This document shows, one piece after another, positions 9,092 to 26,106 of a DNA stretch of 64,000 nt (positions are counted from its first letter, which is position 1; each line of letters begins with the position of its first letter). Origin of the DNA: Comamonadaceae bacterium OH2545_COT-014 (lineage in GTDB: Bacteria > Pseudomonadota > Gammaproteobacteria > Burkholderiales > Burkholderiaceae_C). The DNA lies in NCBI GenBank assembly GCA_003859965.1, contig RQYR01000004.1:80811-144810 (forward strand), read 5' to 3'. A model generated the notes under the pieces. It was not told the origin of the DNA and searched no databases. It worked only from the letters and a program-made list of their open reading frames with translations. The position numbers were made by a program, and so were the translations under genes.

Positions 9092-9149
9092 GGGCAGGCT
9101 TGTGGCAATCAAGCAAAACGGGGCGGCATCATAGCCGGGCGGCTTGTTT

Positions 9150-9166
9150 GCTATTGAAAAAATAGC
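9150..9166 (+). repeat. 17-bp A-rich element, copy 2
   Basis: GCTATTGAAAAAATAGC lies in the spacer between the divergent FAD dehydrogenase and GNAT genes. It is a near-palindrome with GCTATT and AATAGC arms. Confidence 0.65.
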
Positions 9167-9237
9167 TTCCATGGCCGTATTGACGGCCCCAAAGGCCATT
9201 TTGATGCCCAATGCCGGTTGCGCCATACTCGCCATTC

Positions 9238-9951: not shown

Positions 9952-10006
9952 AGCCTGGCGGCCTGTGCCGTGCTGCGCTGTGGCCAGCGCCGCCGTCAGC
10001 GCACCA

Positions 10007-10933: not shown

Positions 10934-11264
10934 GCGCGTGCCTTCCTGTGAGGAGATGGGGGAAGCCTGGCTTGCGCCAGCGCATCGGCGGCAACGGAGA
11001 CGCCGCAGCCGCCGTCTGGCGTGCCAGAAAGCGCTGGCAGTCTATGCCCCGTCCGGGGTGGATGCAAGGCAGGGCAGGGCGGGCGAGCCTGCGGCAGATG
11101 GGCTGCTGGCCCCCGCCCTCTTGCGCCGGCGCACGCCCAGGGCGGCGACCGGCGTGAACGGCGGCCGGGTAGGTATGCTGGCGGCAGGCCAAGGCGGGGC
11201 GCTGGTTCGGCGCCATGGCCCATGATCTGCGCCTCCGGCATGTCTTGAAGGGAAATATGGTCGC
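10934..11264. other. Divergent intergenic spacer without recognised genes
   Basis: A 331-bp GC-rich spacer between the divergent exported-protein and acyl-CoA-synthetase genes. It must contain both promoters, but I see no clear -35/-10 pair, operator or small gene. GAAGGGA at 11247-11253 is the likely ribosome binding site of the plus-strand gene. Confidence 0.4.
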
Positions 11265-14042
11265 ATGAGTACCCGACATCTCGAATCCTTGTTTGCCCCC
11301 CGTTCCGTGGCCGTCATTGGCGCGTCCAGCCGGCCGGCCAGCGTGGGCAGCACGCTGTGGCGCAACGTGCGGCAGGGCGGCTTTCAGGGGGCCATTTACC
11401 CCGTCAACCCCAAATACAAGGCGCTGGACGGCGTGCCCTGCCATGCCAGCGTGGCCGATTTGCCCGAGGCGCCCGAGCTGGCCGTGATCTGCACGCCGCC
11501 GGCCACCGTGGTCAAACTGGTGCGGCAACTGGCCGCGCGGGGCGCCCGGGCGGTGGTGGTCATCACCGCCGGGCTGAGCCGCAAGGACAAGCAGGCCATG
11601 CTGGAGGCCGCGCGGCCCACGCTGATGCGCATCCTCGGCCCCAATTGCGTGGGCCTGCTGGCGCCGCACGCGGGGCTGAACGCCAGCTTCGCGCATATCA
11701 GCGCGCGGCGTGGCGAAATGGCGTTTGTCTCGCAATCGGGCGCGCTGGTCACGGCCCTGCTCGACTGGGCCGAGGCGCGCGACATCGGCTTTTCGCACTT
11801 TGTTTCGCTGGGCGAGCACGCCGACGTGGACTTTGGCGACATGCTCGACTTTCTGGCCAGCGACCCGCGCACGCGCGCCATCTTGCTCTACGTTGAAGCG
11901 GTGACGCATGCGCGCAAGTTCATGTCGGCCGCACGCGCGGCGGCGCGCAACAAGCCGGTGATCGTGGTCAAGGCCGGGCGCAGCGCGCAGGGCCAGAAGG
12001 CCGCCGCCTCGCACACCGGCGCGCTGGCCGGGGCCGATGCGGTGTACGACGCGGCCATTGCCCGCGCCGGCATGCTGCGGGTGGACAGCCTGGACGAGCT
12101 GTTTCTGGCCGCCGAGGCGCTGACGCGCTACCGCGCGCCGGTGGGCGAGGTCATGACCATCCTCACCAACGGCGGCGGCGCGGGCGTGATGGCCGCCGAC
12201 GCGGCCGAGCGCTACGGCGTGCCCCTGGCCGAGCTGCCGCCTGCGCTGGTACGCGAGCTGGACCAGGCGCTGCCCGGCAACTGGTCGCGCGGCAACCCGG
12301 TGGACATCATTGGCGACGCGCCGGCCGAACGCTACGTGGCCGCGCTGCAGGCGCTGGCCCGCCACCGGCAAGCCACGGGCACCATCTTGTTCATTCATGC
12401 GCCCACGGCCATCGTACCGTCCGATGACATCGCGCAGGCGCTGGCCCCGGTGATCCGTCCCCCCGCAGGCGCGGCGCTGCCGGTCATCAGCAGCTGGATG
12501 GGCGGGCCGGCCGTGGCCGCGGCCCGGCGCCGCTTCACCCGCGCCGGCATTGCCTGCTACGACATGCCCGAGCAGGCCGTGCACGCCATCGGCCTGCTGC
12601 AAGCCCACGCCCGCAACCAGGCCGAGCTGGCCGAGGCGCCGCCCGCCGTGCAGGTGCAGGGCGGCGCGCCGCCCGACACCGCCGCCGTGCGCGCCATCGT
12701 GCGGCAGGTGCTCGATGGCGGGCGCGAAATGCTCACCGAGCCCGAGGCCAAGGCCGTGTGCGCGGCCTACCGCATCCCGGTGGCGGCCACCTCCAGCGTG
12801 GGGCCGGACGCCGAAGCCGCCGCCGCCGAGGCCACGCGCATCGGCTACCCGGTGGTGCTCAAAATCCTGTCGGAAGACATTTCGCACAAGTCCGACGTGG
12901 GCGGCGTGGCGCTGGGCCTGGACGACGAGACCGCCGTGCGCGATGCCGCCCGCGCCATGCTGGCGCGCGTGCGGCGGCTGCAGCCCCAGGCGCGCATCGA
13001 CGGCTTTACCGTGCAGCAGATGGTGCGCCGCCAGCAGGCGCAAGAGCTGATCGTGGGCGCCAGCATCGACCCGACCTTTGGCCCCGTCATCCTGTTCGGC
13101 CAGGGCGGCACGGCGGTGGAGGTGACGAAAGACAGCGCCATGGCCCTGCCCCCGCTCAACCCGCCGCTGGCGCGCGCGCTGATCCGGCGCACCCGCGTGG
13201 CCCGCCTGCTGGCCGGCTACCGCGACGTGCCGCCCGCCGACATGGGCGCCATCGTCGGCGTGCTGCAAGCGGTGTCGCAGCTGCTGGCGGACGTGCCGGA
13301 AGTGGCCGAGCTGGACATCAACCCCCTGATCGTCAATGCCGAAGGCGCCATCGCGCTGGATGCCCGCGTGCGCGTGAGCCGCGCGCAGCCAGCCGGCGCC
13401 GCCAATTTCGCCATCCGGCCCTATCCGGCCCAGCTCATCGAGGCCGTGCCCTGGGCGGGGGGCGGCGCGGTCACCCTGCGCCCCATCCGCCCCGAGGACG
13501 AAGCGCAGCACCGCGCCTTCATCGACAGCCTGGCGCCGGAAGACATGCGCATGCGCATGTTCCACAGCCGCCGCATGCTCGAGCGCAGCGAACTGGCGCG
13601 GCTGGTGCAGATCGACTACGCGCGCGAGATGGCCTTCATCGCCACCGCGCTGGATGAAAACGGCGTGGAGCGCACCCTGGGCGTGGCCCGCGCGCTGGCC
13701 GACCCCGACAACGCCAGTGCCGAATTCGGCATCATCACCCGCCCCGAATGCAAGGGCAGCGGCCTGGGCAGCCTGCTGATGGAAAAGCTCATCGCCTACC
13801 AGCGCGCCGCCGGCACCCAGCGCCTGGTGGCGCTGGTGCTGGCCGAAAACGAACGCATGCGCCGCCTGGGCCGCAAGTTCGGCTTTGCCGAGCTGCCCAC
13901 GCCTGGCGACGCCAGCACGGTCGAGCTGAGCCTGGCGCTGCAACCGGCGGCGGCCCCGCCCCGGCGCGGCGTGCTGGACGGCCTCCAGAAAGGGCTGTCG
14001 GCCCGGCGCGCCAGAAAACAGGGCCGCCCGCCCCCGCCTTGA
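11265..14042 (+). CDS. NDP-forming acyl-CoA synthetase fused to GNAT acetyltransferase (Pat/YfiQ-like)
   Basis: A 925-residue protein. In order it has a CoA-binding Rossmann domain (about 10-135, starting [13 protein letters not shown]), a succinyl-CoA-ligase-like domain (about 150-460) with His250 in [10 protein letters not shown] at the position of the phospho-His of ADP-forming acetyl-CoA synthetases, an ATP-grasp domain (about 490-710), and a C-terminal GNAT domain (about 735-900) with [14 protein letters not shown] for acetyl-CoA. This is the architecture of the protein lysine acetyltransferase Pat/YfiQ, which acetylates acetyl-CoA synthetase and other enzymes. Unlike YfiQ, the catalytic-type His appears retained, so ligase activity cannot be excluded. 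It is not followed by a co-directional partner within an operon distance other than htpG, 89 bp downstream. Confidence 0.87.
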
Positions 14043-14131
14043 ACCCGACGACCGCGCCCCCAAATGGCGCAGGTTGTATGACGCGGGTTGCTTTTCATCC
14101 CCCCCTTTCCTCCCCTTTCATCACACCACGC

Positions 14132-16228
14132 ATGAGCACGCAAAAACACGCCTTCCAGGCCGAGGTGGCGCAACTGCTACACCTGGTCACGCATTCGCTG
14201 TATTCCAACCCTGAGATCTTCCTGCGTGAGCTGATCTCCAACGCCTCCGACGCCTGCGACAAGCTGCGCTTCGAGGCGCTGGCCGACCCCTCGCTCTACG
14301 GCGAGCAGCCCGCGCTGGAAGTGCGCATCAGCTTCGACAAAACCGCCCGCACCCTCACGGTGACGGACACCGGCATCGGCATGAGCGAGGCCGAGGCCGT
14401 GCAGCACCTGGGCACCATCGCCAAAAGCGGCACGCGCGACTTCATGGCGCGCCTGTCGGGCGACCAGAAGGCCGACGCCCAACTCATCGGCCAGTTCGGC
14501 GTGGGCTTTTACTCCGGCTTCATCGTGGCCGAGCGGATCACCGTCGAATCGCGCCGCGCCGGCCTGCCGCCCGAAGCCGGCGTGCGCTGGCAAAGCAGCG
14601 GCGCGGGCGACTTCACGGTGGAGCCCATCACCCGCGCCGAGCGCGGCACCAGCGTCACGCTGCATCTGCGCGAGGACGCGCTGGGCTTTGCCGACGGCTG
14701 GCGCCTGAAAGAGCTGATTGGCAAATATTCCGACCACATCGCCCTGCCCATCAAGATGGAAGGCGAGCAATGGCAAGACAGCCCCGAGGAAGGCCAGCCC
14801 GGCCAGATGGTGAAAACCGGCGAGTGGGAAACCGTCAACCAGGCCACCGCCCTGTGGACGCGCCCGCGCAAGGACATCACCGAAGCGCAGTACCAGGACT
14901 TCTACAAACAACTCGCGCACGACTGGGACAACCCGCTCACCTGGAGCCACAACCGCGTGGAAGGCAGCACCGAATACACCCAGTTGCTCTACATTCCGCA
15001 GCACGCCACGCATGATTTGTGGGACCGCGAGCACAAGGCCGGCATCAAGCTGTACGTGCGCCGCGTGTTCATCATGGACGACGCCGAGCAGCTCATGCCG
15101 CGCTACCTGCGCTTCGTCAAGGGCGTGGTCGATTCGGCCGACCTGCCGCTGAACGTGAGCCGCGAGCTGCTGCAGGAAAGCCGCGATGTCAAGGCCATTC
15201 GCGACGGCAACACGCGCCGCGTGCTGACCATGCTGGAAGAGCTGGCCAAGGCCGATGCCGCCGCCCCCATCCCCGCAGCCGACGGCCCGCAGGACGGCCC
15301 GGCCCCCGGCGGCAAGGTGGACATTGGCACCGGCGACGCCACGCCCGCGCCCGAGCCGACCGAGCGGCCCGCCGATGGCGCGACCGACGTGGTGGACAAG
15401 AACGACGCCCCCACCGCCGCCGGCACGGCCGCCCGGTTCGCTGAAGCCCAGGCCCAAACGCCAGACGCCGGCCGCTACGCGCGCTTCTGGCGCGCCTTTG
15501 GCGCCGTGCTGAAAGAGGGGCTGGGCGAAGACCATGCCCACCGCGAACGCCTGCTCAAGCTGCTGCGCTACGCCTCTACCGCCAGCGAAGGCGGCGCCAG
15601 CGTCTCACTGGCCGACTACAAGGCGCGCATGAAGCCGGGGCAGAAAGCCATCTACTACCTCACCGCCGAAACGCCCGCCGCCGCCCGCAGCAGCCCGCAG
15701 CTTGAAGTGTTCCGCCAGAAGGGCATCGAAGTGCTGCTGATGACCGACCGCGTGGACGAATGGGCCATGAACTTCGTGCACGAATTCGACGGCACGCCGA
15801 TGCAGTCGGTGGCGCGCGGCGCGGTGGATTTGGGCGAGCTGCAGGACGAGGCCGAGAAAAAAGCCGCGGAAGCCGCCAGCGCCGCCGCCGCGCCGCTGCT
15901 GGCCCGGCTGAAAGAAGCGCTCAAGGACAAGGCCGCCGACGTGCGCGCCACCACCCGCCTGGTCGATTCGCCCGCCTGCCTGGTGACCGAAGGCGGCGGC
16001 ATGAGCCTGCAACTGGCCCGCATGCTGCGCCAGGCCGGCCAGCAGGCGCCGGAGGTGCGGCCCGTGCTGGAAATCAACCCCGCGCACCCGCTCGTCAAGC
16101 GGCTGGAAGGCGGCGAGCACTTCGAGGCGCTCGCTCACATCCTGTTCGACCAGGCGCTGCTGGCCGAAGGCGGCCTGCCCGAAGACCCCGCCGCTTATGT
16201 GCAGGGGGTCAACGCGCTGCTGGCCTGA
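14132..16228 (+). CDS. htpG: HSP90-family chaperone HtpG with an insertion in the middle domain
   Basis: A 698-residue bacterial Hsp90. The N-terminal GHKL ATPase motifs are intact: [33 protein letters not shown] and [11 protein letters not shown]. The middle domain ([20 protein letters not shown]) and C-terminal dimerisation domain ([13 protein letters not shown]) also match. Between the equivalents of E. coli LAKDDA and KYQTFW there is an extra segment of about 70 residues (about 376-447) rich in Ala, Pro, Asp and Gly, which explains the length above the usual 620-650. ATG 14132 is the family start. A terminator hairpin follows 23 bp after the stop codon. Confidence 0.95.
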
Positions 16229-16251
16229 CGACCGGCGGTCCTGCCTGTTCT

Positions 16252-16290
16252 AAGCGCCTGCGGCTTTGCCATGAAGCCCAGGCGCTTTTT
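16252..16290 (+). terminator. Intrinsic terminator after htpG
   Basis: AAGCGCCTG pairs perfectly with CAGGCGCTT (9 bp) across an 18-nt loop that can pair further (GGCTT/AAGCC), followed by a run of five T. Confidence 0.85.
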
Positions 16291-16341
16291 CATGCCCGTC
16301 CCGCGCGCTTTTCCTGAAGGCCGGTGCGTCAAAAGCTGTTC

Positions 16342-16370
16342 AAAAAAATTTCAAATTTTTTTTCGTAACC
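16342..16370 (+). promoter_or_regulatory. Candidate ECF-type promoter with A/T palindrome ahead of the bufferin-like operon
   Basis: A pure A/T palindrome (AAAAAAATTT-C-AAATTTTTTT, 16342-16362) resembles an UP element, striking in this GC-rich DNA. Directly behind it is GTAACC (16365-16370), the -35 hexamer used by several ECF sigma factors that control MNIO operons, such as Caulobacter SigF. A matching -10 is not obvious (CGCC at 16386-16389 is the nearest candidate), so this stays tentative. Confidence 0.35.
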
Positions 16371-16461
16371 CGTGTCAGGTTTTGCCGCCTGGCCCGACAT
16401 GGCTGGTGTGCGGCGTGTTTGCCGCATGCTTTTTTCAATTTTTTTGATCTGGAGAACCCTC

Positions 16462-16743
16462 ATGAGCCAACTGAAAAACATCGCCGCCCTGGCTGCTTCG
16501 CTGATTGCCGCTTCCGCCTTCACCACTGCCCACGCGGCTGAGCAAAAGTGCGGCGCCGGCACCTGCGGCAAGAAGGAAAGCGCGGCCCCCGCCAAGGGCG
16601 CCAAGGAAGCCGCTTGCTCCAAGAAAGAAGCCGGCTGCGGCAAGAAAGAGGCTTCTTGCTCCAAGAAAGAAGGCAAGGAGGCCGCTTGCTCCAAGAAGGA
16701 AGCTGGCTGCTCCAAGAAAGAAGCGGCCTGCTCCAAGAAGTAA
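16462..16743 (+). CDS. Bufferin/GigP-like precursor peptide with Cys-Lys-Lys-Glu repeats
   Basis: A 93-residue secreted peptide. A Sec signal peptide (1-25, ending TTAHA) is followed by a low-complexity region made only of small residues, Lys, Glu and Cys. Eight cysteines lie at 30, 35, 52, 59, 66, 76, 83 and 90. Six of them sit in a [S/G]KKEA[A/G/S]C repeat with 7-residue spacing, broken once by the insertion GKE. It is followed by genes for an MNIO (DUF692) enzyme and a DUF2063 protein, the machinery that in bufferins oxidises cysteines to thiooxazole-type heterocycles for copper binding. That this peptide is modified in the same way is inferred. ATG 16462 follows GGAG at 16451-16454. Confidence 0.8.
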   Translation: MSQLKNIAALAASLIAASAFTTAHAAEQKCGAGTCGKKESAAPAKGAKEAACSKKEAGCGKKEASCSKKEGKEAACSKKEAGCSKKEAACSKK

Positions 16744-16792
16744 TCGCCTCATCGCATCACCACGCACGCAAGTCACACAGGCAGGAATCACC

Positions 16793-17650
16793 ATGATCGG
16801 ACTGGGCTACCGGCGCGAAATGCGCGATTGGGACGTTGCCGCCCTGAACGCCGACTTTTTTGAAGTGGCGCCGGAGAACTGGCTGCGCCGCTCGCGCGAG
16901 CCGCTGCACCAATTGCTGGCGCTGGGCCGGCCCGTGTTCCTGCATGGCGTGTCGCTCAACCTGGGCGGCACTTCGGAGATTTCTGCCGACTTCGTGCGTG
17001 GCGTGCGCGACTTGCTGGCCGAACTGGGCACCGACCGCTATTCCGACCACCTGGCCGCCAGCGGCGACGCGCACCAGCTCTACGACCTGTTTCCCATCCC
17101 CTTCACACTGGGCGAGGCGCGCCGCGTGGCCGAGCGCATCAGCCGCGTGCAAGACCTGCTGGGCCAGCGCATGGCCATCGAAAACAGCAGTTGGTACACC
17201 AACGTGGGCGAGATGAGCGAGCCGGAATTTCTGATGGAAGTGGTACGCCGCGCCGACTGCCGCATCCTGCTCGATCTGAACAACATCGACGTCAACAACA
17301 AGAACCACGGCGGCCCCGACCTGGATGCCTACGTGGCGCAGGTGGACCTCTCGCGCGTGAGCTACATGCACGTGGCCGGGCACGAGTTCGACGAACGCTT
17401 TGGCATGCACGTGGACACGCACAGCCAGCCCGTGGAGCCGCATACCGCGCGCAAGGCGCGCGCGCTGCACGCCGCGCACGGCCTGCCCATCCTGCTGGAG
17501 TGGGACAACGACATCCCCGACGCCGCCACGCTCAACCGCGAGCTGGCCAGCCTGCGCCAGCCGCTGCCGGCGGCCGCTCCTCTCACGGCGGCTACCGCTG
17601 GCGTGCCCCGCAGCGACCCCGCCCGCCGCCGCGCCAAGGAGCTGGCATGA
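16793..17650 (+). CDS. MNIO-family (DUF692) iron enzyme modifying the Cys-rich peptide
   Basis: A 285-residue TIM-barrel enzyme of the multinuclear non-heme iron oxidative family. Conserved metal-ligand segments are present in order: FLHGVSLNLGG, YSDHLA, MAIENSSWY, LLDLNNIDVNNKNHGG, YMHVAGHEF, DTHSQPVEPHT and ILLEWDNDIP. Such enzymes use iron and oxygen to convert peptidyl cysteines. The gene starts 49 bp after the precursor gene behind an AGGAA sequence, and its stop overlaps the partner gene by 4 bp (ATGA). The longer frame open to 16505 overlaps the peptide gene and is not the real start. The C-terminal 30 residues are Ala/Arg-rich and nonconserved. Confidence 0.92.
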   Translation: MIGLGYRREMRDWDVAALNADFFEVAPENWLRRSREPLHQLLALGRPVFLHGVSLNLGGTSEISADFVRGVRDLLAELGTDRYSDHLAASGDAHQLYDLFPIPFTLGEARRVAERISRVQDLLGQRMAIENSSWYTNVGEMSEPEFLMEVVRRADCRILLDLNNIDVNNKNHGGPDLDAYVAQVDLSRVSYMHVAGHEFDERFGMHVDTHSQPVEPHTARKARALHAAHGLPILLEWDNDIPDAATLNRELASLRQPLPAAAPLTAATAGVPRSDPARRRAKELA

Positions 17651-17979
17651 ACGCCGCCGCCACCCTGCCGCTGCCGCCCCAGGCCCAACAAAACCAGACC
17701 GAAGCCAGCACCGCCGCCTTCTACGACTACGTGCGCGGCCGCACGGACACCGTGCCGCCCGGCTACACCGAAGCGGGCCTGCGCGTGTACCGCTACCTCG
17801 TCTATCTGGGCGCCAGCCAGATGATCGAAGCCCACCACCCCGCGCTGCGCGAGCAACTGGGCGAGCAGGATTGGCGCACCCTGATCGAAGCCTTCGTGCG
17901 CGACTCACGCTGGCAATCGAATTTTTATGAAGACCTCAACGATGCATTCACCGACTTTCTCGCCCGCGCCAGCCAGTGA
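17647..17979 (+). CDS. Short DUF2063-like partner protein of the MNIO enzyme
   Basis: A 110-residue protein that overlaps the MNIO gene by 4 bp. The sequence TAAFYDYVRGRTDTVPP, then GLRVYRYLVYLGASQMIEAHHP and FVRDSRWQSNFYEDLNDAF, corresponds to the helical N-terminal DUF2063 domain. In bufferin systems this protein binds the precursor and guides it to the MNIO enzyme. Typical BufC proteins are about 250 residues with a second domain; this one ends after the first, so it is a short form and not obviously damaged, because the reading frame and downstream overlap are intact. Function is assigned from context and domain. Confidence 0.75.
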   Translation: MNAAATLPLPPQAQQNQTEASTAAFYDYVRGRTDTVPPGYTEAGLRVYRYLVYLGASQMIEAHHPALREQLGEQDWRTLIEAFVRDSRWQSNFYEDLNDAFTDFLARASQ

Positions 17980-18469
17980 GGCCACAGCCTGCCAGGGCTG
18001 CGCTGTGCTCGGCGGCCTGCGCCGCCTGCTGCAAGACGCCGGCCTGCTGGGCCTGCGCCTGTGGGCCGGGCAGGAATTCATCCGTGCCGGGCTGACCAAG
18101 CTGCAAGGCAGCGGCGGCGCGCCCGAGTGGTTTGCCGGGCTGGACTTTCCCTTTCCCAACAGCCTGCTCAGCGCCGACTTCAACTGGCTGGCCGCCGGCT
18201 GGGGCGAGCTGCTGCTGGGCGCGGCCCTGGCGCTGGGCCTGGGCAGCCGCCTGGCCGCGCTGGGCCTGCTCTACATCACCTGGGTGGCCGTGTACACCGT
18301 GCATTTCGATCTGGGCTGGGCGGGCTGGAACCAGATCGACACCGACGAAGGTCAGGGCTTCAAAGTGCCGCTGATGCTGGGCCTGATGCTGTTTGCCGTA
18401 CTCACCCAGGGCGGCGGGCGCTGGTCGCTCGACCGGCTGCTGCTGCGCCGCCGCTGCCAAGGCGCCTAG
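17942..18469 (+). CDS. DoxX-family membrane protein of the bufferin-like operon
   Basis: A 175-residue inner-membrane protein with four predicted membrane segments and the DoxX pattern GLRLWAGQEFIRAGLTKLQG, then a periplasmic loop and LAAGWGELLLGAALALG. The cytoplasmic N-terminus has a CxxC pair (ACQGC). Alternatively it begins at ATG 17927 (five residues longer). Either start overlaps the DUF2063 gene by 38-53 bp, so translation is likely coupled. DoxX proteins accompany MNIO/DUF2063 pairs in bufferin and gold-induced gig operons; a role in quinone-linked redox chemistry or in supplying electrons is possible but unproven. Confidence 0.82.
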   Translation: MHSPTFSPAPASEATACQGCAVLGGLRRLLQDAGLLGLRLWAGQEFIRAGLTKLQGSGGAPEWFAGLDFPFPNSLLSADFNWLAAGWGELLLGAALALGLGSRLAALGLLYITWVAVYTVHFDLGWAGWNQIDTDEGQGFKVPLMLGLMLFAVLTQGGGRWSLDRLLLRRRCQGA

Positions 18470-18512
18470 GGCCTGGCCCCGACCCGTGCAGCGGGCGACA
18501 TAATGCGCGGCC

Positions 18513-19118
18513 ATGACCCAGCCGTCCTCTCCCGCCATCGACGCGGCGGCGCTGGCCGACGCCTGGCGCCAGCCCATGCTGCGCTTTGCCCTGCTGCATC
18601 TGCAACCGCCTGAAGAAGCCGAGGACGCCGTGCAAGACGCCCTGCTCGCCCTGCTCAACGCCCAGCCCGCCGCCCTCACGCAGGGCGATCCCCGGCACTA
18701 CCTGTTCGGCATCCTCAAGCACAAGATCACCGACCGCCTGCGCGCCAAGTACCGCCCCGAAGTGGGCTACCAGGAAGCCTTCGAGGACGAGCTGGACAAC
18801 GTGCTGTTCGACGCGCGCGGCCACTGGCAACCCGGCGTGGCCCCTGCCCCCTGGAGCAGCCCCGAAGGCGCACTGCAAAACAGCCAGTTCTTCGCCATCG
18901 TCGATCTGTGCGTGCACAAGCTGCCGCCCAAGGTAGCGCGCGTGTTCAGCATGAAAGAGCTGCTGGAATGCGACAGCGCCGAGGTGTGCGACACCCTGGG
19001 GCTGACCAAGACCGACTATTGGCAATGCATGAGCCGTGCGCGCAAGCAGCTGCAAATCTGCCTGCACCAGCACTGGTTCGGCACACAGAACCCTGGCGCA
19101 CGGGAGCGCGCGGCATGA
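18513..19118 (+). CDS. ECF-type RNA polymerase sigma factor
   Basis: A 201-residue sigma-70-family factor with region 2 (about 20-90: EEAEDAVQDALLALL, then RHYLFGILKHKITDRLR) and region 4 (about 135-190: KELLECDSAEVCDTLGLTK, then RARKQLQICL). It lacks regions 1 and 3, so it is of the ECF class. It is 43 bp downstream of the DoxX gene and overlaps a zinc-finger anti-sigma gene by 4 bp (ATGA). It very probably controls the bufferin-like operon, comparable to RpoQ, which has been described for the gig operon of Cupriavidus metallidurans. Cys residues in region 4 and at 100-180 may sense metal, but that is conjecture. Confidence 0.88.
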   Translation: MTQPSSPAIDAAALADAWRQPMLRFALLHLQPPEEAEDAVQDALLALLNAQPAALTQGDPRHYLFGILKHKITDRLRAKYRPEVGYQEAFEDELDNVLFDARGHWQPGVAPAPWSSPEGALQNSQFFAIVDLCVHKLPPKVARVFSMKELLECDSAEVCDTLGLTKTDYWQCMSRARKQLQICLHQHWFGTQNPGARERAA

Positions 19119-19366
19119 ACTGCCAGCAATACCTGTTCAAGCTCACCTCGGGGCAGCTGCAGGATGCCCCGGCCAGCGAACGCATGCAGGCCGCGCTGCA
19201 CCGCCTCGTGTGCCGCCACTGCCGCGACTTCACGCACAACGACGCCATGCTGGACCAGGCGCTGGGCGCCTGGCGCGCCCGCCTGCAAGAAGCGCCGCCC
19301 GCTGCGCCACCCGATGGGGACGCCGCGCCACCGGCGGCGTCGCCACGCAGCTCGGCCTCGCCCTAG
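19115..19366 (+). CDS. Zinc-finger (zf-HC2) anti-sigma factor
   Basis: An 83-residue soluble protein that overlaps the sigma gene by 4 bp. It has the anti-sigma zinc motif H-x3-C-x2-C in LHRLVCRHCRDF near residue 30 and an extra Cys at position 3. The helical half ends near residue 60 and is followed by an Ala/Pro-rich tail. No membrane segment is present, so it would act as a cytoplasmic ZAS-type anti-sigma that releases the sigma factor when zinc or a thiol is disturbed. Its stop codon lies at the edge of a 180-bp spacer repeat (19364-19542). Confidence 0.8.
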   Translation: MNCQQYLFKLTSGQLQDAPASERMQAALHRLVCRHCRDFTHNDAMLDQALGAWRARLQEAPPAAPPDGDAAPPAASPRSSASP

Positions 19367-19542
19367 AACTTGTTCAACATCCCCGCGCGGCGGGCCATCC
19401 AACGGATGGGGGCGGTCTGCTTCCGTGGGGCCAAGCCTCGCCCTGGCACGGGCCACGGCAAGCTCGGTGCGTGGTGGCGCCTTGCATCCCATCCCCAGCC
19501 GCTTTTGCCCCCTGTCACGCAGGGATGTTGAACAGGCTCTTA
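19364..19542 (-). repeat. Spacer element A with 13-bp terminal inverted repeats
   Basis: TGTTCAACATCCC (19371-19383) is inverted as GGGATGTTGAACA (19522-19534). Read on the minus strand, the element starts TAAGAGCCTGTTCAACATCC and resembles a second element at 51613-51775. It overlaps the anti-sigma stop codon and has no ORF, so it is MITE-like or a dispersed intergenic repeat. Confidence 0.5.
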
Positions 19543-19604
19543 CGGCGCTACCCATGCAGTCACCCGGCAACGGGGCGGCGGCTGCGCTACAGTCGCGGCG
19601 CCTC

Positions 19605-20018
19605 ATGAAACCCCCGATCCGCCCCGTTCCCAACCCGGCCCGCGTGCAGTGGCGTCGCCGCATGGCCATGCTGCTGTGGCGCGCCCTGGCTGTGGTCAGC
19701 CTGATACTGGCCGCAGCGGGCATGGCGTTGCCGGTGCTGCCCACCGTGCCCTTTGTGCTGCTGGCCGCCTGGGCGGCAGGCAAGGGCTGGCCACGGCTGG
19801 AGCAGTGGATGCTGGCCCACCCGCTGTTTGGCGCGCACATCCGCCGCTGGCGTGAACGCGGCGTGGTGCCGCGCCGGGCCAAATGGCTGGCCACGATCAT
19901 GATGAGCATCAGTGCCACCGGGCTTCAGTTCATGCCCTTGCCGCTCTGGCTGCGCCTGGGCGTGCCGGCCGTCATGCTGGCGGTCGCCATTTGGCTGTGG
20001 CAGCGCCCCGAGGACTAA
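19605..20018 (+). CDS. YbaN/DUF454-family inner-membrane protein
   Basis: A 137-residue protein with the DUF454 pattern: a first membrane helix, the turn GMALPVLPTVPFVLLAAWAAGKG, then W-x2-HPLFGAHIRRW and two C-terminal membrane helices. The physiological role of the family is unknown. It is monocistronic between the repeat element and the liuR promoter region. The ATG at 19605 is the last in-frame start before the conserved region. The longer frame open from 19164 overlaps the anti-sigma gene and is not used. Confidence 0.82.
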   Translation: MKPPIRPVPNPARVQWRRRMAMLLWRALAVVSLILAAAGMALPVLPTVPFVLLAAWAAGKGWPRLEQWMLAHPLFGAHIRRWRERGVVPRRAKWLATIMMSISATGLQFMPLPLWLRLGVPAVMLAVAIWLWQRPED

Positions 20019-20086
20019 AGCGCATCGCGTCAGTGCGTACCAATAAAGGCCAGTAGGTATTTGAGGCCGTAGATACGCCCTGAAGT

Positions 20087-20103
20087 GCTATATTTTTGAT
20101 AAT
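20087..20103 (-). repeat. 17-bp A-rich element, copy 7
   Basis: The minus strand reads ATTATCAAAAATATAGC. It is the most divergent family member at its left end but agrees with the others through TATCAAAAATA and AGC. It lies 31 bp upstream of the putative liuR promoter. Confidence 0.5.
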
Positions 20104-20133
20104 TCATGACGGGGCTGCGCGGCCCGGCTTGCG

Positions 20134-20163
20134 TTGACACCCGCCACGGCCGCTCGGTACGAT
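20134..20163 (+). promoter_or_regulatory. Putative sigma-70 promoter of liuR
   Basis: TTGACA (20134-20139) and TACGAT (20158-20163) with an 18-bp spacer, 30 bp upstream of the liuR ATG. Extended spacers are usual at MerR-regulated promoters, so autoregulation is possible, but no clear operator palindrome is visible here. Confidence 0.5.
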
Positions 20164-20192
20164 GGATGCGTCCATTGCCCTCTGGTTCGCTC

Positions 20193-20672
20193 ATGAGCAA
20201 CGCATCCACTTACACCATTGGCGATTTGGCGCGCGAGTTTGACCTGACCACGCGCGCCATGCGTTTTTATGAAGACATGGGCTTGCTGCAACCCGCGCGC
20301 ACCGGCCCTGGCGGGCGGCAGCGCCAGTACAGCGCACGTGATCGCACACGCCTGAAGCTCACGCTGCGCGCCAAGCGGCTGGGCTTGTCGCTCACGGAGG
20401 CCAAGGCGCTGATCGACATGTACGACAGCCCGCGAGACACCGTGGCCCAGCTGGAGCGGTTTTTGCAAGTGCTGGCCGCCCACCGGCGCCAGATTGAAGC
20501 GCAGCTGGCCGAGTTGCAGGCCACGCTGCGCGAGGTCAAGGCGCATGAGAAAGAGGCGCGTGCCGCGCTGCTGTCTGCCGCGCCCGCCATGGCCGCCCGG
20601 TGTACGACAGGCCAGCCGGGCCGGCGCGGTGCTGGCAACGGCGATAATGGGTTGACGTTCACGTCAACGTAA
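20193..20672 (+). CDS. liuR: MerR-family transcriptional regulator, LiuR-type
   Basis: A 159-residue regulator. The N-terminal MerR winged helix (YTIGDLAREFDLTTRAMRFY, then LLQPARTG) is followed by a long helix (about 80-150) for dimerisation. LiuR proteins repress leucine and isovalerate degradation genes, and this one is directly upstream of isovaleryl-CoA dehydrogenase, which supports the name. The C-terminus is poor in conserved residues. The last eight codons (NGLTFTST) overlap a perfect TTGACGT-TC-ACGTCAA palindrome, so the operator for the next gene seems to be embedded in the coding end. ATG 20193 is chosen because the family begins shortly before the YTIGDLA motif. Confidence 0.85.
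   Translation: MSNASTYTIGDLAREFDLTTRAMRFYEDMGLLQPARTGPGGRQRQYSARDRTRLKLTLRAKRLGLSLTEAKALIDMYDSPRDTVAQLERFLQVLAAHRRQIEAQLAELQATLREVKAHEKEARAALLSAAPAMAARCTTGQPGRRGAGNGDNGLTFTST
20652..20667 (+). promoter_or_regulatory. Putative LiuR operator upstream of isovaleryl-CoA dehydrogenase
   Basis: A perfect 16-bp palindrome, TTGACGT-TC-ACGTCAA, followed by CGTAACG. It has the form of described LiuR sites with TTxACGT half-sites. It lies 157 bp before the ivd start and within the last codons of liuR. A dedicated promoter for ivd is expected close by, but I cannot pick a -10. Confidence 0.7.
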
Positions 20673-20823
20673 CGGCGTCCAGTCCGTGCCAGCCCGGCAA
20701 GTCTTGCCTTGTGCCTTTTCGCATGCCGTGCAGGGCATAAAGCCAGGCGTGGGATGCAAAACCCTCCTGCCAGGTCACAGCGCTCGCCGTTGATTCATAC
20801 CTTCAAATCCAGGAGACAAACCC

Positions 20824-22005
20824 ATGAGCAACCTGCCCGGCCTGAACTTCCAGCTTGGCGAAGACATCGACGCGCTGCGCGACGCCGTGCGCACCTTCGC
20901 CGAAGCCGAAATCGCTCCGCGCGCGGCCGAGATCGACAAGAGCGACCAGTTCCCCATGGACCTGTGGCCCAAGATGGGCGAGCTGGGCGTGCTGGGCATC
21001 ACCGTGCCCGAAGCCTACGGCGGTGCCGACATGGGCTACCTGGCGCACATGATCGCCATGGAAGAAATCAGCCGCGCCAGCGCCAGCGTGGGCCTGTCCT
21101 ACGGCGCGCACTCCAACCTGTGCGTGAACCAGATCAAGCGCAACGGCAACGAGGAGCAGAAAAAGAAATACCTGCCCAGGCTGATCAGTGGCGAGCACAT
21201 CGGCGCGCTGGCCATGAGCGAGCCCGGCGCAGGCAGCGACGTGGTGAGCATGAAGCTCAAGGCCGAGGACAAGGGCGGCTACTACCTGCTCAACGGCAGC
21301 AAGATGTGGATCACCAACGGCCCGGACGCCGACACCATGGTCGTTTACGCCAAGACCGAGCCTGAGCTGGGCGCGCGCGGCATCACCGCCTTCATCGTCG
21401 AAAAAGGCATGAAAGGCTTTGACACCGCGCAAAAGCTGGACAAGCTGGGCATGCGCGGCAGCCACACTGGCGAGATGGTGTTCGACAACGTGGAAGTGCC
21501 CGCCGAGAACGTCATGGGCGGCCTCAACAATGGCGTGAAAGTGCTGATGAGCGGCCTGGACTACGAGCGCGCCGTGCTGGCTGCCGGCCCCATCGGCATC
21601 ATGCAGGCCGTGATGGACAACGTCGTGCCCTACATCCACGACCGCAAGCAGTTTGGCCAGAGCATTGGCGAATTCCAGCTCGTGCAGGGCAAGGTGGCCG
21701 ACATGTACACCGTGCTGCAAGCGGGCCGGGCCTTTCTCTACACCATCGGCAAGAACCTGGACGTGCTGGGCACTGAGCACGTGCGCCAGGTGCGCAAGGA
21801 CTGCGCTTCCGTCATCCTCTGGTGCGCTGAGCAGGCCACCAAAATGGCCGGCGACGGCATCCAGCTCTTTGGCGGCAACGGCTACATCAACGAATACCCG
21901 CTGGGCCGCCTGTGGCGCGACGCCAAGCTGTACGAAATCGGCGCGGGCACCAGCGAAATCCGCCGCATGCTCATCGGCCGCGAGCTGTTTGCCGAGACGA
22001 TGTGA
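20824..22005 (+). CDS. ivd: Isovaleryl-CoA dehydrogenase
   Basis: A 393-residue acyl-CoA dehydrogenase that oxidises isovaleryl-CoA to 3-methylcrotonyl-CoA in leucine breakdown, using FAD and passing electrons to ETF. Family hallmarks are [31 protein letters not shown] (FAD side), [11 protein letters not shown] and the substrate-specific [13 protein letters not shown] segment. The latter holds the catalytic Glu at the position used by isovaleryl-CoA dehydrogenases, not the usual C-terminal one. The C-terminus [17 protein letters not shown] fits. A strong ribosome binding site AGGAG precedes the ATG. The stop codon overlaps the next GNAT gene by one base, so they are cotranscribed. The carboxylase genes of the pathway are not in this window. 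Confidence 0.93.
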
Positions 22006-22598
22006 TGACGTCGAATGCTTGCCGCCCTCAGGCGTTGGCCTTGCCTGTTCTGCCGCTTGGACTGGACGGTTGGTGTCTGCGCGGTTGGCAAGCCTCCGAT
22101 GCAGCCAGCCTGCATCTGCACATCAACCAACCCGATGTCACCCGCTGGCTGGGCGACTGGATGCCCGACGAATACACCCTGGAAATGGCCCAGGATTGGG
22201 TCAGTGGCGGTGCGCTGGCCATGCCGGGCCGTAGTTGGGCCGTCGCTCACGGTGCGCAGGCCGTGGGGTCGGCAGGCATACACCCCCATGGCGATGCGTG
22301 CAATGCCATGATCGGTTACTGGCTGGGCCGCTCTTTCTGGGGCCAGGGTGTGGGCACGCACATCGTGCGCTGCCTGACGACAGAGGCATTTCAAGACCCT
22401 TGCGTCATGCGTGTGGTGGCCCCCATTCGCCCGGAAAACATCGCCTCACAGCGGGTGTGCGAAAAAAACGGCTTTGTGCGCGAGGGGCTGCTGCGCATGA
22501 GTGCGCTCAAGAAAGGACGTCCCGTCGATACCGTGTTATGGGCCGCCTACCGGGACACCTGGGCGGGAGGGCTCAAGCCGCCCCTCAACCAAATTTGA
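22005..22598 (+). CDS. GNAT-family N-acetyltransferase, RimJ/RimL-like
   Basis: A 197-residue GNAT enzyme. Features are GLDGWCLRGWQASDAASLHL at the N-terminus, a central strand AMIGYWLGRSFWGQGVGTHI that carries the GQGVGT acetyl-CoA loop, and a C-terminal NIASQRVCEKNGFVREG helix. It overlaps the isovaleryl-CoA dehydrogenase stop by one base, so it is coexpressed with that gene. The substrate is unknown; an acyl-transfer role linked to leucine catabolism is only suggested by position. Confidence 0.83.
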   Translation: MTSNACRPQALALPVLPLGLDGWCLRGWQASDAASLHLHINQPDVTRWLGDWMPDEYTLEMAQDWVSGGALAMPGRSWAVAHGAQAVGSAGIHPHGDACNAMIGYWLGRSFWGQGVGTHIVRCLTTEAFQDPCVMRVVAPIRPENIASQRVCEKNGFVREGLLRMSALKKGRPVDTVLWAAYRDTWAGGLKPPLNQI

Positions 22599-22609
22599 AA
22601 GCCCAGGGC

Positions 22610-22714
22610 ATGACTTCTTCCATTCAATACCTCATCGACGCCAACCACGCCTGGGTGCCGGCCCACGCCCCATGGCGGGGCGCAAAAACCGGGCCGGGGC
22701 TGCCCTCGTTTTAG
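22610..22714 (+). pseudogene. Truncated duplicate of the carbonic anhydrase 5' end
   Basis: This 34-codon frame (MTSSIQYLIDANHAW, then unrelated VPAHAPWRGAKTG and a stop) repeats the start of the carbonic anhydrase gene 0.8 kb downstream. A 27-nt stretch, 22629-22655, is identical to 23449-23475. After that the sequences diverge completely. It most likely is a remnant of a duplicated or rearranged carbonic anhydrase gene, lying between the GNAT gene and the hemerythrin gene. Expression as a functional peptide is unlikely. Confidence 0.65.
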
Positions 22715-23256
22715 CGTGAGCGTCCGGTATGGGCAGTGGCGCGCCGCACGGCGGGGGTGTCGGTTTGCCCGGCGCGCTCGGCGGCATAGCCCCAATCGGC
22801 CGCGTACTTGCGCTTCATGCGCGCGTAGTCGCGCAGGTATTGCGAACCCAGGCGGGTTTTTTGCGCGTCGGTCAGGATCTTGCCGCTGACCTGGAAAAAA
22901 CCGCGCTCCTCTTCTTTGAGGTGGTGCCGCACCTCGTGCGCCAGCGCCTTGGCTTTTTCGCCCCAGGCCTGGCCTTCGGGTGCCAGCGCGCCCAGCTCGG
23001 CCACCAGCTCGTCCAGCTCGTGATGCTCGGCCAGGGCGTGGCGCGCGCTGTCCAGGCCCATGTCGTCCATCATCATGGGCGAATACAGAAAACGCTCCTC
23101 GGCGGCCGCGTGGGCGGCCAATTCCAGCTTGAGCGTCAAAAAGGCATCACGCCGCCCCTGCGGGTTGGTGGCGCGGGTGCGCGTCAGGCGGGTGCACCAT
23201 TCGCGCTGGATGTCGTGGCTTTCGCGCAGGGCTTCGTAAATCGTGGGGGAGGTCAT
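22711..23256 (-). CDS. Hemerythrin-like HHE domain protein
   Basis: A 181-residue four-helix protein with the HHE pattern. Histidine and acidic ligands appear in ESHDIQREW, HAAAEERFLY, HHELDELV and HHLKEEERGFF. Such proteins bind a di-iron centre for O2 or NO sensing, storage or repair. The frame is open further to 23286, but ATG 23256 (MTSPTIYEAL) fits the family. The C-terminal 30 residues are basic and Ala-rich. Its stop codon overlaps the end of the carbonic anhydrase remnant, so the rearrangement may have joined the two genes. Confidence 0.82.
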   Translation of the reverse strand: MTSPTIYEALRESHDIQREWCTRLTRTRATNPQGRRDAFLTLKLELAAHAAAEERFLYSPMMMDDMGLDSARHALAEHHELDELVAELGALAPEGQAWGEKAKALAHEVRHHLKEEERGFFQVSGKILTDAQKTRLGSQYLRDYARMKRKYAADWGYAAERAGQTDTPAVRRATAHTGRSR

Positions 23257-23423
23257 GAGCGGGCTGCTTTCATCAAGGGAGAACACAGGGCTTGAGCCAG
23301 ACGCACGGCCCGTCTTGATGAAGCGACACGTGCGCAGGCTTGGCGGCGCGTCCCATTGTTTCTGTGTTCATTTGGCCACTCTGTAGGATGAACCCTTTTC
23401 GTTCCCAGCTTCCGCATTGCCTG

Positions 23424-24125
23424 ATGCCCGAATCCAGCATCCTCCAACACCTCATCGACGCCAACCACGCCTGGGCCGAGCAGGTGGCGCGCGACAAGCC
23501 CGGCTTTTTTGAAAAGCTGGCGCAGCAGCAAACGCCCAAATACCTGTGGATCGGCTGCTCCGACAGCCGCGTGCCCGCCAACCAGGTCGTGGCGCTGGCG
23601 CCGGGCGAAGTCTTCGTGCACCGCAACGTCGCCAACGTCGTCGTGCACTCCGACCTGAACGCGCTCTCGGTCATCCAGTACGCGGTCGATTTCCTCAAGG
23701 TCGAGCACATCATGGTCGTGGGCCACTACGGCTGCGGCGGCGTGCTGGCCGCGCTGCACGGCACGCGCGTGGGCCTGGCCGACAACTGGCTGCGCCACGT
23801 GCACGACGTGAAAATGCGCCACCGCGGCCGCCTCATGCACCTGTGCCGCCACGAGCAGGAAGACGCGCTGTGCGAGATGAACGTCATCGAACAAGTTGGC
23901 CACATTGCCATGAGCAACGTCATGCAAGACGCCTGGGCGCGCGGCCAGCAAGTGGCCGTGCACGGCTGGTGCTACGGCCTCAAGGACGGCAAGGTCAAGG
24001 ACTTGGGCGTGACCATGACCCGCGCGCAAGATGTTGTGGATGTGTACCGCACCGCCATCAAGCGCTACCCGCGCGCGCCTGGCCTGGAAACCGCCGGGCC
24101 GGAAGATTTGCCGGAGGAACCATGA
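23424..24125 (+). CDS. can: Beta-class carbonic anhydrase
   Basis: A 233-residue cytoplasmic zinc enzyme that interconverts CO2 and bicarbonate. Zinc ligands are the Cys of WIGCSDSRVP and the His and Cys of VVGHYGCGGV; the Asp and Arg of the SDSR dyad are present. ATG 23424 (MPESSILQHL) agrees with relatives; earlier in-frame codons lack similarity. The stop overlaps the aceK start by 4 bp (ATGA), an unusual pairing that makes the two a translationally coupled operon. The first part is duplicated as a pseudogene fragment at 22610. Confidence 0.93.
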   Translation: MPESSILQHLIDANHAWAEQVARDKPGFFEKLAQQQTPKYLWIGCSDSRVPANQVVALAPGEVFVHRNVANVVVHSDLNALSVIQYAVDFLKVEHIMVVGHYGCGGVLAALHGTRVGLADNWLRHVHDVKMRHRGRLMHLCRHEQEDALCEMNVIEQVGHIAMSNVMQDAWARGQQVAVHGWCYGLKDGKVKDLGVTMTRAQDVVDVYRTAIKRYPRAPGLETAGPEDLPEEP

Positions 24126-26005
24126 AAACCACTCTGCCCGTGGTGCCGCGCGTCGATTCGCCGCTGGCGCATGAGATTGCCAGCGCCATGATGGAAGGCT
24201 TCAACCGCCACTACCGCCTGTTCCGTCAGGAGACGGCGCGCGCCAAGCACCGTTTCGAGACGGCCGATTGGCATGGCCAGCAGCGCGGCCAGCGCGAGCG
24301 CATCGAGTTCTACGACGTGCGCGTGCGCGAGTGCGTGCAGCGGCTGGAAAAAGAGTTTCGCGCCGGTTCGCAGCCCATGGAGGTCTGGTACGAGGCCAAG
24401 CTGCTGTACATCGGCCTGCTGGTGGGGCATTTCCAGCCGGAGCTGGCCGAGACCTTCTTCAACTCGGTGACGACCAAGATCCTGCACCGCACGTATTTCC
24501 AGAACAGTTTCCTGTTCGTGCGCCCGGCCATCAGCACGGAGTACATCCAGATCGACGAGCCCTCGGAATCGACCACCTTCCGCTGCTATTACCCGCGGCG
24601 CGATGCGCTGGAGGAGGTGGTGGCGCAGATGCTGGAGGACTGCCGCCTGCAGCGCGCCTTCACCGACCGCGCGCGCGATGTGCGGCGCGTGGCGCAGGCG
24701 CTGTCGGCGCTGCTGGGCGATGCCAAGATCCGCACCAATTTCCAGATTCAGGTGCTCTCCAGCCTGTTCTACCGCAACAAGGGCGCATACCTGGTGGGCA
24801 AGCTCATCAACGGCTTTGACGAGATGCCCATTTGCCTGCCCATCCTGCACGACGAGCACGGCGGCCTGTACGTGGATGGGCTGCTGCACACCGAGCGCGA
24901 CATGCACACGCTGTTCTCGTTCTCGCGCGCCTATTTCATGGTGGACATGGAAATCCCCTCGGCCTACGTGCAGTTTCTGCGCAGCATCATGCCGCGCAAG
25001 CCGCGCAACGAGATCTACAACTCGCTGGGCCTGGCCAAGCAGGGCAAGAACCTGTTCTACCGCGACTTTCTCAGCCACCTGCGCAGCTCCACCGACAAGT
25101 TCCGCATTGCGCCGGGCATCAAGGGCATGGTGATGCTGGTGTTCGACCTGCCCAGCTTTCCCTACGTGTTCAAGCTCATCAAGGACTACTACCCGCCGCA
25201 GAAGGAGACCACGCGCGAGCAGATCAAGGGCAAGTACCGTCTGGTCAAGCAGCACGACCGCGTGGGCCGCATGGCCGACACCATGGAGTACAGCGAGGTG
25301 GCCTTCCCGCGCGCGCGCTTCGAGGACGAGCTGATCGCGGAAATCCAGAAGTTCGCCCCCAGCCAGCTGGAGATCTCCGACCGCGACGGCGACGGCAACA
25401 TCGAGGTCATCCTCAAGCACCTGTACATCGAGCGGCGCATGATCCCGCTGAACATCTACCTGCAGGAAACCTTCGACGCTGGCGAGGGCGACGCGCGCGC
25501 CCAGCGCCAGATGGAGCACGCCGTCATCGAATACGGCAACGCCATCAAGGACCTGGTGGCGGCCAACATCTTCCCCGGCGACATGCTGTGGAAGAACTTC
25601 GGCGTCACCCGCCACGGCAAGGTGGTGTTCTACGACTACGACGAGATCGAATACATCACCGACTGCAACTTCCGCAAAGTGCCCGCGCCGCGCAACGAGG
25701 AAGAGGAGATGAGCGGCGAGATCTGGTACAGCGTGGCCAAGAACGACGTCTTCCCCGAGACCTTCGGCCCCTTCTTGCTGGGCAACCCGCGCGTGCGCGA
25801 CATCTTCATGCAGCACCACGGCGATTTGCTTGAGCCGCAGTTCTGGCAGCAGCACAAGGAGCGCATCCAGCAAGGCCATGTGTACGATGTGTTCCCCTAC
25901 GACGGCAGCAGCCGCTTTGCCGACGAAGGCGGCGCAGCGCCTGCCGATGCCGCCGCACTGGCTCCGCCCGGTGGCACGGCCCAGAGCGGCAATGTGCCCG
26001 CCTGA
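24122..26005 (+). CDS. aceK: Isocitrate dehydrogenase kinase/phosphatase
   Basis: A 627-residue bifunctional enzyme that phosphorylates and dephosphorylates isocitrate dehydrogenase, setting the split between the TCA cycle and the glyoxylate shunt. It has the regulatory N-terminal domain (about 10-310) and a kinase-like C-terminal domain starting near residue 315 with the ATP loop APGIKGMVMLVFDL. The catalytic-type segment VTRHGKVVFYDYDEIEY lies near residue 500. E. coli AceK is 578 residues; the surplus is an Ala/Pro-rich C-terminal tail of about 40. It overlaps the carbonic anhydrase gene by 4 bp. No glyoxylate shunt gene (aceA, aceB) lies nearby. Confidence 0.95.
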   Translation: MKTTLPVVPRVDSPLAHEIASAMMEGFNRHYRLFRQETARAKHRFETADWHGQQRGQRERIEFYDVRVRECVQRLEKEFRAGSQPMEVWYEAKLLYIGLLVGHFQPELAETFFNSVTTKILHRTYFQNSFLFVRPAISTEYIQIDEPSESTTFRCYYPRRDALEEVVAQMLEDCRLQRAFTDRARDVRRVAQALSALLGDAKIRTNFQIQVLSSLFYRNKGAYLVGKLINGFDEMPICLPILHDEHGGLYVDGLLHTERDMHTLFSFSRAYFMVDMEIPSAYVQFLRSIMPRKPRNEIYNSLGLAKQGKNLFYRDFLSHLRSSTDKFRIAPGIKGMVMLVFDLPSFPYVFKLIKDYYPPQKETTREQIKGKYRLVKQHDRVGRMADTMEYSEVAFPRARFEDELIAEIQKFAPSQLEISDRDGDGNIEVILKHLYIERRMIPLNIYLQETFDAGEGDARAQRQMEHAVIEYGNAIKDLVAANIFPGDMLWKNFGVTRHGKVVFYDYDEIEYITDCNFRKVPAPRNEEEEMSGEIWYSVAKNDVFPETFGPFLLGNPRVRDIFMQHHGDLLEPQFWQQHKERIQQGHVYDVFPYDGSSRFADEGGAAPADAAALAPPGGTAQSGNVPA

Positions 26006-26106
26006 GCGTCAGCGCGCGCCGCGCCGTCTGGCGTTGGCAGATGCGCTTTGAGTCTTATGAATAGCCCTCTTGCTTGCCGCGCCTGCCTGCTAGCCGCCTT
26101 GCAACC

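What the first reader, a model, noticed from the sequence alone, without database searches (positions are those of the whole stretch)
16342..19366. Bufferin/Gig-like RiPP operon with its own ECF sigma and zinc-finger anti-sigma
Seen: precursor with signal peptide and Cys/Lys repeats, MNIO (DUF692) enzyme, DUF2063 partner, DoxX-family protein, then an ECF sigma factor and an H-x3-C-x2-C anti-sigma, all co-directional with 4-bp overlaps or short gaps. Established knowledge: MNIO plus DUF2063 pairs convert cysteines of bufferin precursors to copper-binding heterocycles, and a similar gold-induced operon (gig) is controlled by RpoQ. Inference: this operon is a metal-responsive RiPP system with a new precursor type.
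Basis: partly seen in the sequence, partly recalled or inferred. Interest (0 to 1): 0.75.

Follow-up and report, generated by a model that had tools for sequence, protein, structure and literature searches.

The report
Stripped-down copper-peptide operon with stress switch
This is a six-gene bacterial operon encoding a small cysteine-rich peptide, predicted to be exported and likely turned into a copper-binding peptide by an iron enzyme whose partner protein lacks the usual substrate-gripping half; its own stress sigma factor would switch it on together with genes that repair oxidised proteins outside the cytoplasm.

Summary
The operon is real: precursor, MNIO, DUF2063 protein, DoxX/HvfX, ECF sigma and ZAS anti-sigma, all co-directional. 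By anatomy it resembles HvfABCX/oxazolin and Neisseria NMB2140-2145 (sigma-E/MseR), not Buf1/Buf2 or gig. Three features set it apart. (1) The precursor has a KCGAG[TS]CGKK-type head and C[SAG]KK repeats, and matches no Pfam or NCBIfam model. (2) The partner is the DUF2063 half alone: 9 of 9 MNIOs at 49% identity or more have it, whereas of 22 MNIOs at 44% or less, 17 have full-length partners, 2 are fused to one and 3 could not be read. (3) The MNIO clade (32 rows, support 100/99) has E-W-D-N where relatives have E-R-D-F/D. A TGTCAGG-N15/16-CGAC promoter precedes the precursor in 17 of 17 loci with an adjacent sigma gene, and also periplasmic trx-MsrAB (4 of 4 genomes) or msrP (3 of 10). Best reading: a captophorin-like copper-binding peptide made during periplasmic oxidant/copper stress. 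Modification, copper binding and inducer are untested. The block was probably acquired horizontally. It may overlap the 'adjamnio-3' group of Antoine 2025, whose alignment I could not see.

The parts
16373..16398 (+). Predicted ECF promoter: -35 TGTCAGGTTT, -10 CGAC, 15 nt between TGTCAGG and CGAC
   Evidence: Exact match in window; same motif upstream of the precursor in 17 of 17 loci with an adjacent sigma gene
16405..16430 (+). Stem-loop (11 pairs) followed by a T run in the 5' leader; possible attenuator or stabiliser
   Evidence: z -3.9; leader hairpins of varying strength in relatives; no Rfam match
16462..16743 (+). Precursor, 93 aa: Sec-type signal peptide by eye, head KCGAGTCGKK, then C[SG]KK repeats; 8 Cys
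   Evidence: no Pfam or NCBIfam match
16793..17650 (+). MNIO (DUF692) maturase of a distinct clade (E236-W-D238-N239)
   Evidence: PF05114 238 bits; 3bww E 1.4e-41; tree; active-site columns
17647..17979 (+). Partner protein, 110 aa: DUF2063 (MNIO-docking) half only, no RRE half
   Evidence: PF09836 51.7 bits; HvfC model 3-88 of 237; structure model and comparison; controls
17927..18469 (+). DoxX-family membrane protein (HvfX)
   Evidence: NF050144 87.4 bits, over cut-off 80
18513..19118 (+). ECF sigma factor
   Evidence: TIGR02943 170.5 bits, over cut-off 162.2; Pfam r2 and r4
19115..19366 (+). Soluble ZAS-motif anti-sigma factor, 83 aa (C3-x25-H29-x3-C33-x2-C36)
   Evidence: sequence; motif in 19 of 19 relatives' proteins; NF052368 27 bits, below cut-off 50

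Best explanation
The six co-directional genes encode a Cys-rich precursor with a predicted Sec signal, an MNIO enzyme, a DUF2063 partner without the RRE half, a DoxX/HvfX protein, an ECF sigma factor and a ZAS-motif anti-sigma, and they likely make a periplasmic thiooxazole-bearing, copper-binding peptide when oxidant or thiol-reactive metal stress is predicted to release the sigma factor. Steps. (1) Inferred: oxidation or metalation of the Cys3/His29/Cys33/Cys36 zinc site of the anti-sigma frees the sigma factor. (2) Sequence-supported, untested: the sigma reads TGTCAGG-N15/16-CGAC at its own operon, at trx-MsrAB and at a DsbD-family gene. (3) Inferred by homology: MNIO plus partner oxidise cysteines of the precursor by -4 Da each, up to 8. 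(4) Inferred: because the partner has no RRE, it only docks on the MNIO and tunes its iron cofactor, and the enzyme reads the C[SAG]KK repeats directly through its altered E-W-D-N site. (5) Inferred: the product is exported by Sec and binds Cu(I) while MsrAB/MsrP and DsbD repair oxidised periplasmic proteins.
Confidence: 0.66

Rival explanations
1. The precursor is an unmodified or only lightly modified metallothionein-like or sacrificial thiol peptide; the MNIO acts on few cysteines (for instance only the KCG/TCG head) and the repeats act as plain thiols against oxidants.
For: Only the head (KCGAG[TS]CG) resembles known KCG substrates; the C[SAG]KK repeats are new. The co-regulated genes are methionine-sulfoxide and disulfide repair genes.
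Against: Nearly every Cys after the first head Cys is in the same C[SAG]KK frame in 29 precursors, as expected for an iteratively modified repeat; the MNIO clade has its own conserved active-site change.
Confidence: 0.17
2. Substrate recognition is not RRE-free: an RRE is supplied in trans by an unlinked protein, or the short partner itself binds the leader.
For: RRE sequences diverge widely (recalled); the PF22106 search of the genome had no working built-in control. Antoine 2025 speculates that the partner binds the signal peptide.
Against: The NCBIfam HvfC model finds one place in the window's genome, the short partner. PF22106 detects the RRE half in a full-length partner and in two natural fusions but in none of five short partners scanned.
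Confidence: 0.2
3. The operon is a dedicated metal (Cu/Au/Ag) detoxification unit and the sigma pair senses metal directly.
For: Bufferins, gig operons and oxazolins are tied to copper or gold; a zinc-thiol site can be metalated.
Against: Regulon content (MsrAB, MsrP, DsbD-family) and the H. influenzae HOCl precedent favour oxidant damage. Flanks gave three protein clusters in 4 or more loci; I did not name them and none was recognised as a metal gene.
Confidence: 0.2
4. The MNIO installs a different modification (for example oxazolone/thioamide or another oxidation).
For: Clade-specific E-W-D-N in place of E-R-D-F/D and divergence from HvfB and BufB models.
Against: Gadgil 2026 reports that all characterised MNIO-PME1 pairs install 5-thiooxazole, and FonB F250 variants still did so.
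Confidence: 0.12

Closest known systems
HvfABCX / oxazolin operon of Haemophilus influenzae with RpoE2-HrsE (PMC7907618, PMC13419390, PMC13097082)
   Same: Sec-type precursor, MNIO, DUF2063 partner, HvfX; control by an ECF sigma with a small ZAS anti-sigma; msrAB in the same regulon
   Different: EGKCG repeats and an RRE-containing partner there; C[SAG]KK repeats and a DUF2063-only partner here; sigma gene lies with msrAB there (section titles), in the operon here
Neisseria rpoE operon NMB2140-NMB2145 with MseR; gonophorin (PMC2893595, PMC13097082)
   Same: Six genes with the same functions in one sigma-controlled operon; ZAS motif with an extra N-terminal Cys; -35 motif and 12-13 nt spacer; trx-msrAB co-regulated
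   Different: Gene order as I read it from the locus numbers (DoxX first there); -10 is CGTCTAAH there, CGAC here; NGO1945 partner has the RRE half; EGKCG precursor
Bufferins 1 and 2 and gig operons (PMC12452194)
   Same: Core of precursor, MNIO, DUF2063, DoxX; Buf1 clusters can carry sigma genes
   Different: No DUF2282 match, no CxGxNxCKG pattern; anti-sigma is ZAS, not NrsF; partner half-sized
adjamnio-3 group of Antoine 2025 (PMC12452194)
   Same: Signal-peptide precursors predicted to be unstructured, bufferin-like clusters, DUF2063 partners
   Different: Cannot tell: its alignment is in a supplement that I could not open; the text says its partners are bona fide PME-type 1

Membership tests
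MNIO superfamily (PF05114) | Profile match over the curated cut-off and conserved metal-site residues | tested here: met
   238 bits, cut-off 25; invariant H/E/D/N positions across 54 rows
HvfB or BufB equivalogs | NF003818 360 bits / NF050167 310 bits | tested here: not met
   236.2 and 198.9 bits
HvfC / PME-type 1 partner | DUF2063 plus RRE (NGO1945_C) halves | tested here: not met
   HvfC model 54 bits (cut-off 142), positions 3-88 of 237; full-length controls G087 and G184 match 1-237; PF22106 in L070 partner, none in 5 short partners
HvfX | NF050144 over 80 bits | tested here: met
   87.4 bits
Captophorins (Gadgil 2026) | MNIO with PME1 containing DUF2063 and RRE | tested here: not met
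   RRE half absent
Captophorins (Gadgil 2026) | DUF2282, Lys-Cys 5-mer repeats, or multiple Cys-Lys motifs | tested here: not met
   No DUF2282 match; one KCG in the head only; repeats are C-x-K-K
Captophorins (Gadgil 2026) | 5-thiooxazoles and copper binding | not testable with these tools
   needs mass spectrometry, NMR and metal assays
Bufferin 1 | DUF2282 precursor | tested here: not met
   no Pfam match
Bufferin 2 | Buf_6/12Cys profile | tested here: inconclusive
   profile not in the libraries; by eye no CxGxNxCKG pattern as in Buf2-like comparators
TIGR02943 ECF sigma factors | score over 162.2 bits | tested here: met
   170.5 bits
ZAS anti-sigma factors (MseR/HrsE type) | C/H-x23-26-H-x3-C-x2-C | tested here: met
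   window sequence and 19 of 19 relatives; the NF052368 model itself scores 27 of 50 bits
ZAS anti-sigma factors (MseR/HrsE type) | zinc binding and inhibition of the cognate sigma | not testable with these tools
   bench assay needed

The most novel reading that the evidence does not exclude
A natural separation of function in MNIO partners: this clade has discarded the RRE half, so the DUF2063 half alone docks on the MNIO and sets its active mixed-valent iron state, and the enzyme, through an altered E-W-D-N active-site motif, chooses its cysteines by reading C[SAG]KK repeats without leader recognition. The product is a new captophorin-like class co-expressed with periplasmic methionine-sulfoxide repair.
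Probability: 0.4. Interest if true: 0.7.

Novelty: new variant of a known kind. Interest (0 to 1): 0.52.

Why it matters
HvfC is thought to do two jobs: bind the substrate through its RRE, and bring HvfB's iron cluster to the active mixed-valent state (PMC13419390, passages). A compact partner that keeps only the DUF2063 half would let these jobs be separated with a natural protein and would offer a minimal, RRE-free RiPP maturase. The shared promoter also ties such peptides to periplasmic methionine and disulfide repair in Burkholderiales, which makes the question 'copper or oxidant?' testable with one reporter.

Tried and rejected
Bufferin 1 (no DUF2282). Plasmid-borne copies: none in the plasmid collection. 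tRNA genes as an insertion site: none in window 8000-28000. Conserved metal genes in the flanks: three protein clusters recur in 4 or more of 30 loci; I did not name them. Rfam match in the leader: none. The leader stem-loop as a conserved RNA: hairpins near the -10 fold in many of 22 leaders, but z-scores run from -4.0 to +1.2, so I make no claim; my first leader alignment was badly placed, and one of the two stretches folded (L033) was cut inside the hairpin and gave z +0.9. Sigma genes beside msr or DsbD loci: none in the 14 loci scanned. Clean empty site in three congeners: not found; similarity stops at the end of htpG. Fold search of the partner: Foldseek alone was weak (3dee first, E 1.8, prob 0.92, no row at E <= 0.001). 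PDB search with the anti-sigma: only a chance row (E 0.29). Paper search for the repeat motif: no relevant paper in the ten listed of 11,438 that hold a term, so this is no proof of absence. The random-stretch null was contaminated by the operon promoters themselves (99% quantile 25.8), so I rely on the cytoplasmic msr controls. Selection to declare: the 30 loci were found with an alignment of short partners, so '30 of 30 short' is partly by construction; the MNIO search is the less biased test. A1 used 21 of 219 and A2 23 of 138 homologues, picked by hand. The 14 genomes were chosen because they hold the operon.
Full report
Observation. The six genes are as described, with coordinates refined. 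Pfam and NCBIfam identify the MNIO (PF05114), DUF2063 (PF09836), HvfX (NF050144, over cut-off) and TIGR02943 sigma factor (over cut-off). The precursor has no match. The anti-sigma matches NF052368 only below cut-off, but carries C3-x25-H29-x3-C33-x2-C36. The window's genome has one MNIO and one DUF2063 protein.

Precursor family. A database search gave 138 homologues at E <= 1e-3 from 268 candidates, 120 listed. An alignment of the window's protein with 23 of them shows a signal-like N-terminus, a head KCGAG[TS]CGKK and repeats of 7-mer type (x-x-C-S-K-K-E/D). In 29 precursors from fetched loci the head is exactly KCGAG[TS]C[GS]KK in 19 and a variant in 10; after the first head Cys nearly every Cys sits in C[SAG]K[KR] (precursors were taken from the longest open frame, so some Cys counts there include residues before the real start). 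None of 24 members matches a captophorin-related NCBIfam model (best E 0.012, unrelated names). KCG-type precursors next to MNIOs at 39-44% identity (L010, L018) carry DGKCGEAKCG followed by EASCG/DASCG-KK. The new type therefore looks like a derivative of the KCG line, not an unrelated invention. The signal peptide is judged by eye; no predictor was run.

Enzyme. In a 54-row tree the clade of 32 is separated with support 100/99; one member, L069, is a long branch and the root is only a midpoint. Positions E130, D161, N164, H193, D208, H210, E236 and D238 are invariant in 54 of 54 and H51 in 53 of 53. The clade has W237 in 32 of 32 (R in 22 of 22 others) and N239 in 31 of 32; the site is F in 2 of 2 KCG-type MNIOs and D in 17 of 20 others. 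I equate D238-N239 with FonB D249-F250 by motif position; the FonB sequence itself was not fetched. Gadgil 2026 tie that site to the residues around the modified Cys (Phe in Lys-Cys, Asp in Cys-Lys enzymes; Results part 3). The second Arg of the RR pair they discuss is kept in 25 of 31 clade rows.

Promoter and regulon. Upstream of the precursor, TGTCAGG-N15/16-CGAC occurs in 17 of 17 loci with an adjacent sigma gene (close relatives included), 3 of 10 with room but no sigma gene (one of them as TGTAAGG), and 2 of 2 truncated contigs; chance expectation 0.02 of 29, one-sided Fisher 1.4e-4. L051, left out of that count, also has the motif without an adjacent sigma, which would make it 4 of 11. 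Allowing one mismatch, about one match is expected per window by chance; the site itself has none. In the window's genome the N15 form has five exact matches, reversed control none: the operon; about 55 bp before a Trx-MsrA-MsrB protein; about 127 bp before a DsbD-family protein; one inside a gene; and one with no evident target. In 14 chosen genomes, the operon promoter is present in all; trx-MsrAB has it in 4 of 4 and MsrP in 3 of 10, while 21 cytoplasmic msrA/msrB loci score at most 10.8 against 22.9 or more. The MsrAB and MsrP genomes are complementary (4 and 10). The Neisseria sigma-E consensus is -35 GTMAGBWTT, -10 CGTCTAAH, spacer 12-13 nt, with the rpoE operon and msrA/msrB as the only targets found (PMC2893595, section 11 and passages). 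GTCAGGTTT-N13-CGAC in the window fits the -35 and the spacer, but not the -10 exactly. H. influenzae RpoE2 controls msrAB and the DoxX/MNIO operon under HOCl (PMC7907618, abstract and two sections). Against an oxidant signal, meningococcal sigma-E did not respond to H2O2, diamide or singlet oxygen.

Wider context. TIGR02943 sigma factors pass the cut-off in 86 of 200 genomes of the order. Of the 30 best loci, 8 show an MNIO above 30 bits within the fetched stretch, 5 of these a KCG-repeat ORF, and 28 of 30 an HxxxCxxC ORF. Sigma-linked KCG clusters are thus not rare, although Antoine 2025 mention sigma genes with Buf1 and not with Buf2; what is unusual here is the C[SAG]KK precursor with the half-size partner.

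Origin. DNA similarity to Vandammella loci (87%) is confined to 16343-19269. The neighbouring htpG is 75% identical to Vandammella and 80% to three congeneric genomes, which are listed without an MNIO match, and MsrAB is 78% identical. This favours horizontal acquisition of the whole block. No clean empty site was found.

Literature and novelty. Seen: PMC12452194 (abstract, Results parts 1-3 of 4, Discussion, passages), PMC13097082 (abstract, Results parts 1-3 of 4, passages), PMC13419390 (abstract, passages), PMC7907618 and PMC2893595 as above, PMC9302797 (abstract). The gig/RpoQ papers were seen as search listings only. In these and in searches I found no description of the C[SAG]KK precursor or of a DUF2063-only partner for signal-peptide precursors. 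Antoine 2025 in fact report a narrow size distribution for DUF2063-RRE partners and full-type partners for such precursors. The adjamnio-3 group could be this clade; its alignment is in a supplement I had no access to. Verdict: it works like a captophorin system, but by the RRE and repeat criteria I do not file it as one; a new variant of a known kind.

Noticed in passing
window 16405-16430: 11-pair stem-loop followed by a T run between the predicted -10 and the precursor start; terminator-like, might attenuate or stabilise the transcript.
   Followed up: partly
L011:1348-3294 and L029:1246-3105: Natural single ORFs holding MNIO, DUF2063 and NGO1945_C domains, a natural counterpart of the engineered HvfBC fusion.
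   Followed up: partly
window 16343-19269: Operon block shares 87% DNA identity with Vandammella although flanks are unrelated and three congeneric genomes show no MNIO match: likely horizontal transfer.
   Followed up: partly
L046 and L059: Macromonas nakdongensis holds two copies of the cluster, one with and one without sigma genes and promoter.
   Followed up: no
L078 (own genome C2:134617): Near-identical copy of the operon promoter, spacer included, about 127 bp before a DsbD-family thiol:disulfide reductase.
   Followed up: partly
L010 and L018: KCG-type precursors whose tails (EASCG/DASCG-KK) look intermediate between EGKCG and C[SAG]KK repeats.
   Followed up: partly
L043, L055, L056 (Bordetella): Bordetella relatives carry precursors with few Cys; of the three, only B. 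trematum (L056) has the sigma, anti-sigma and promoter beside the cluster.
   Followed up: no
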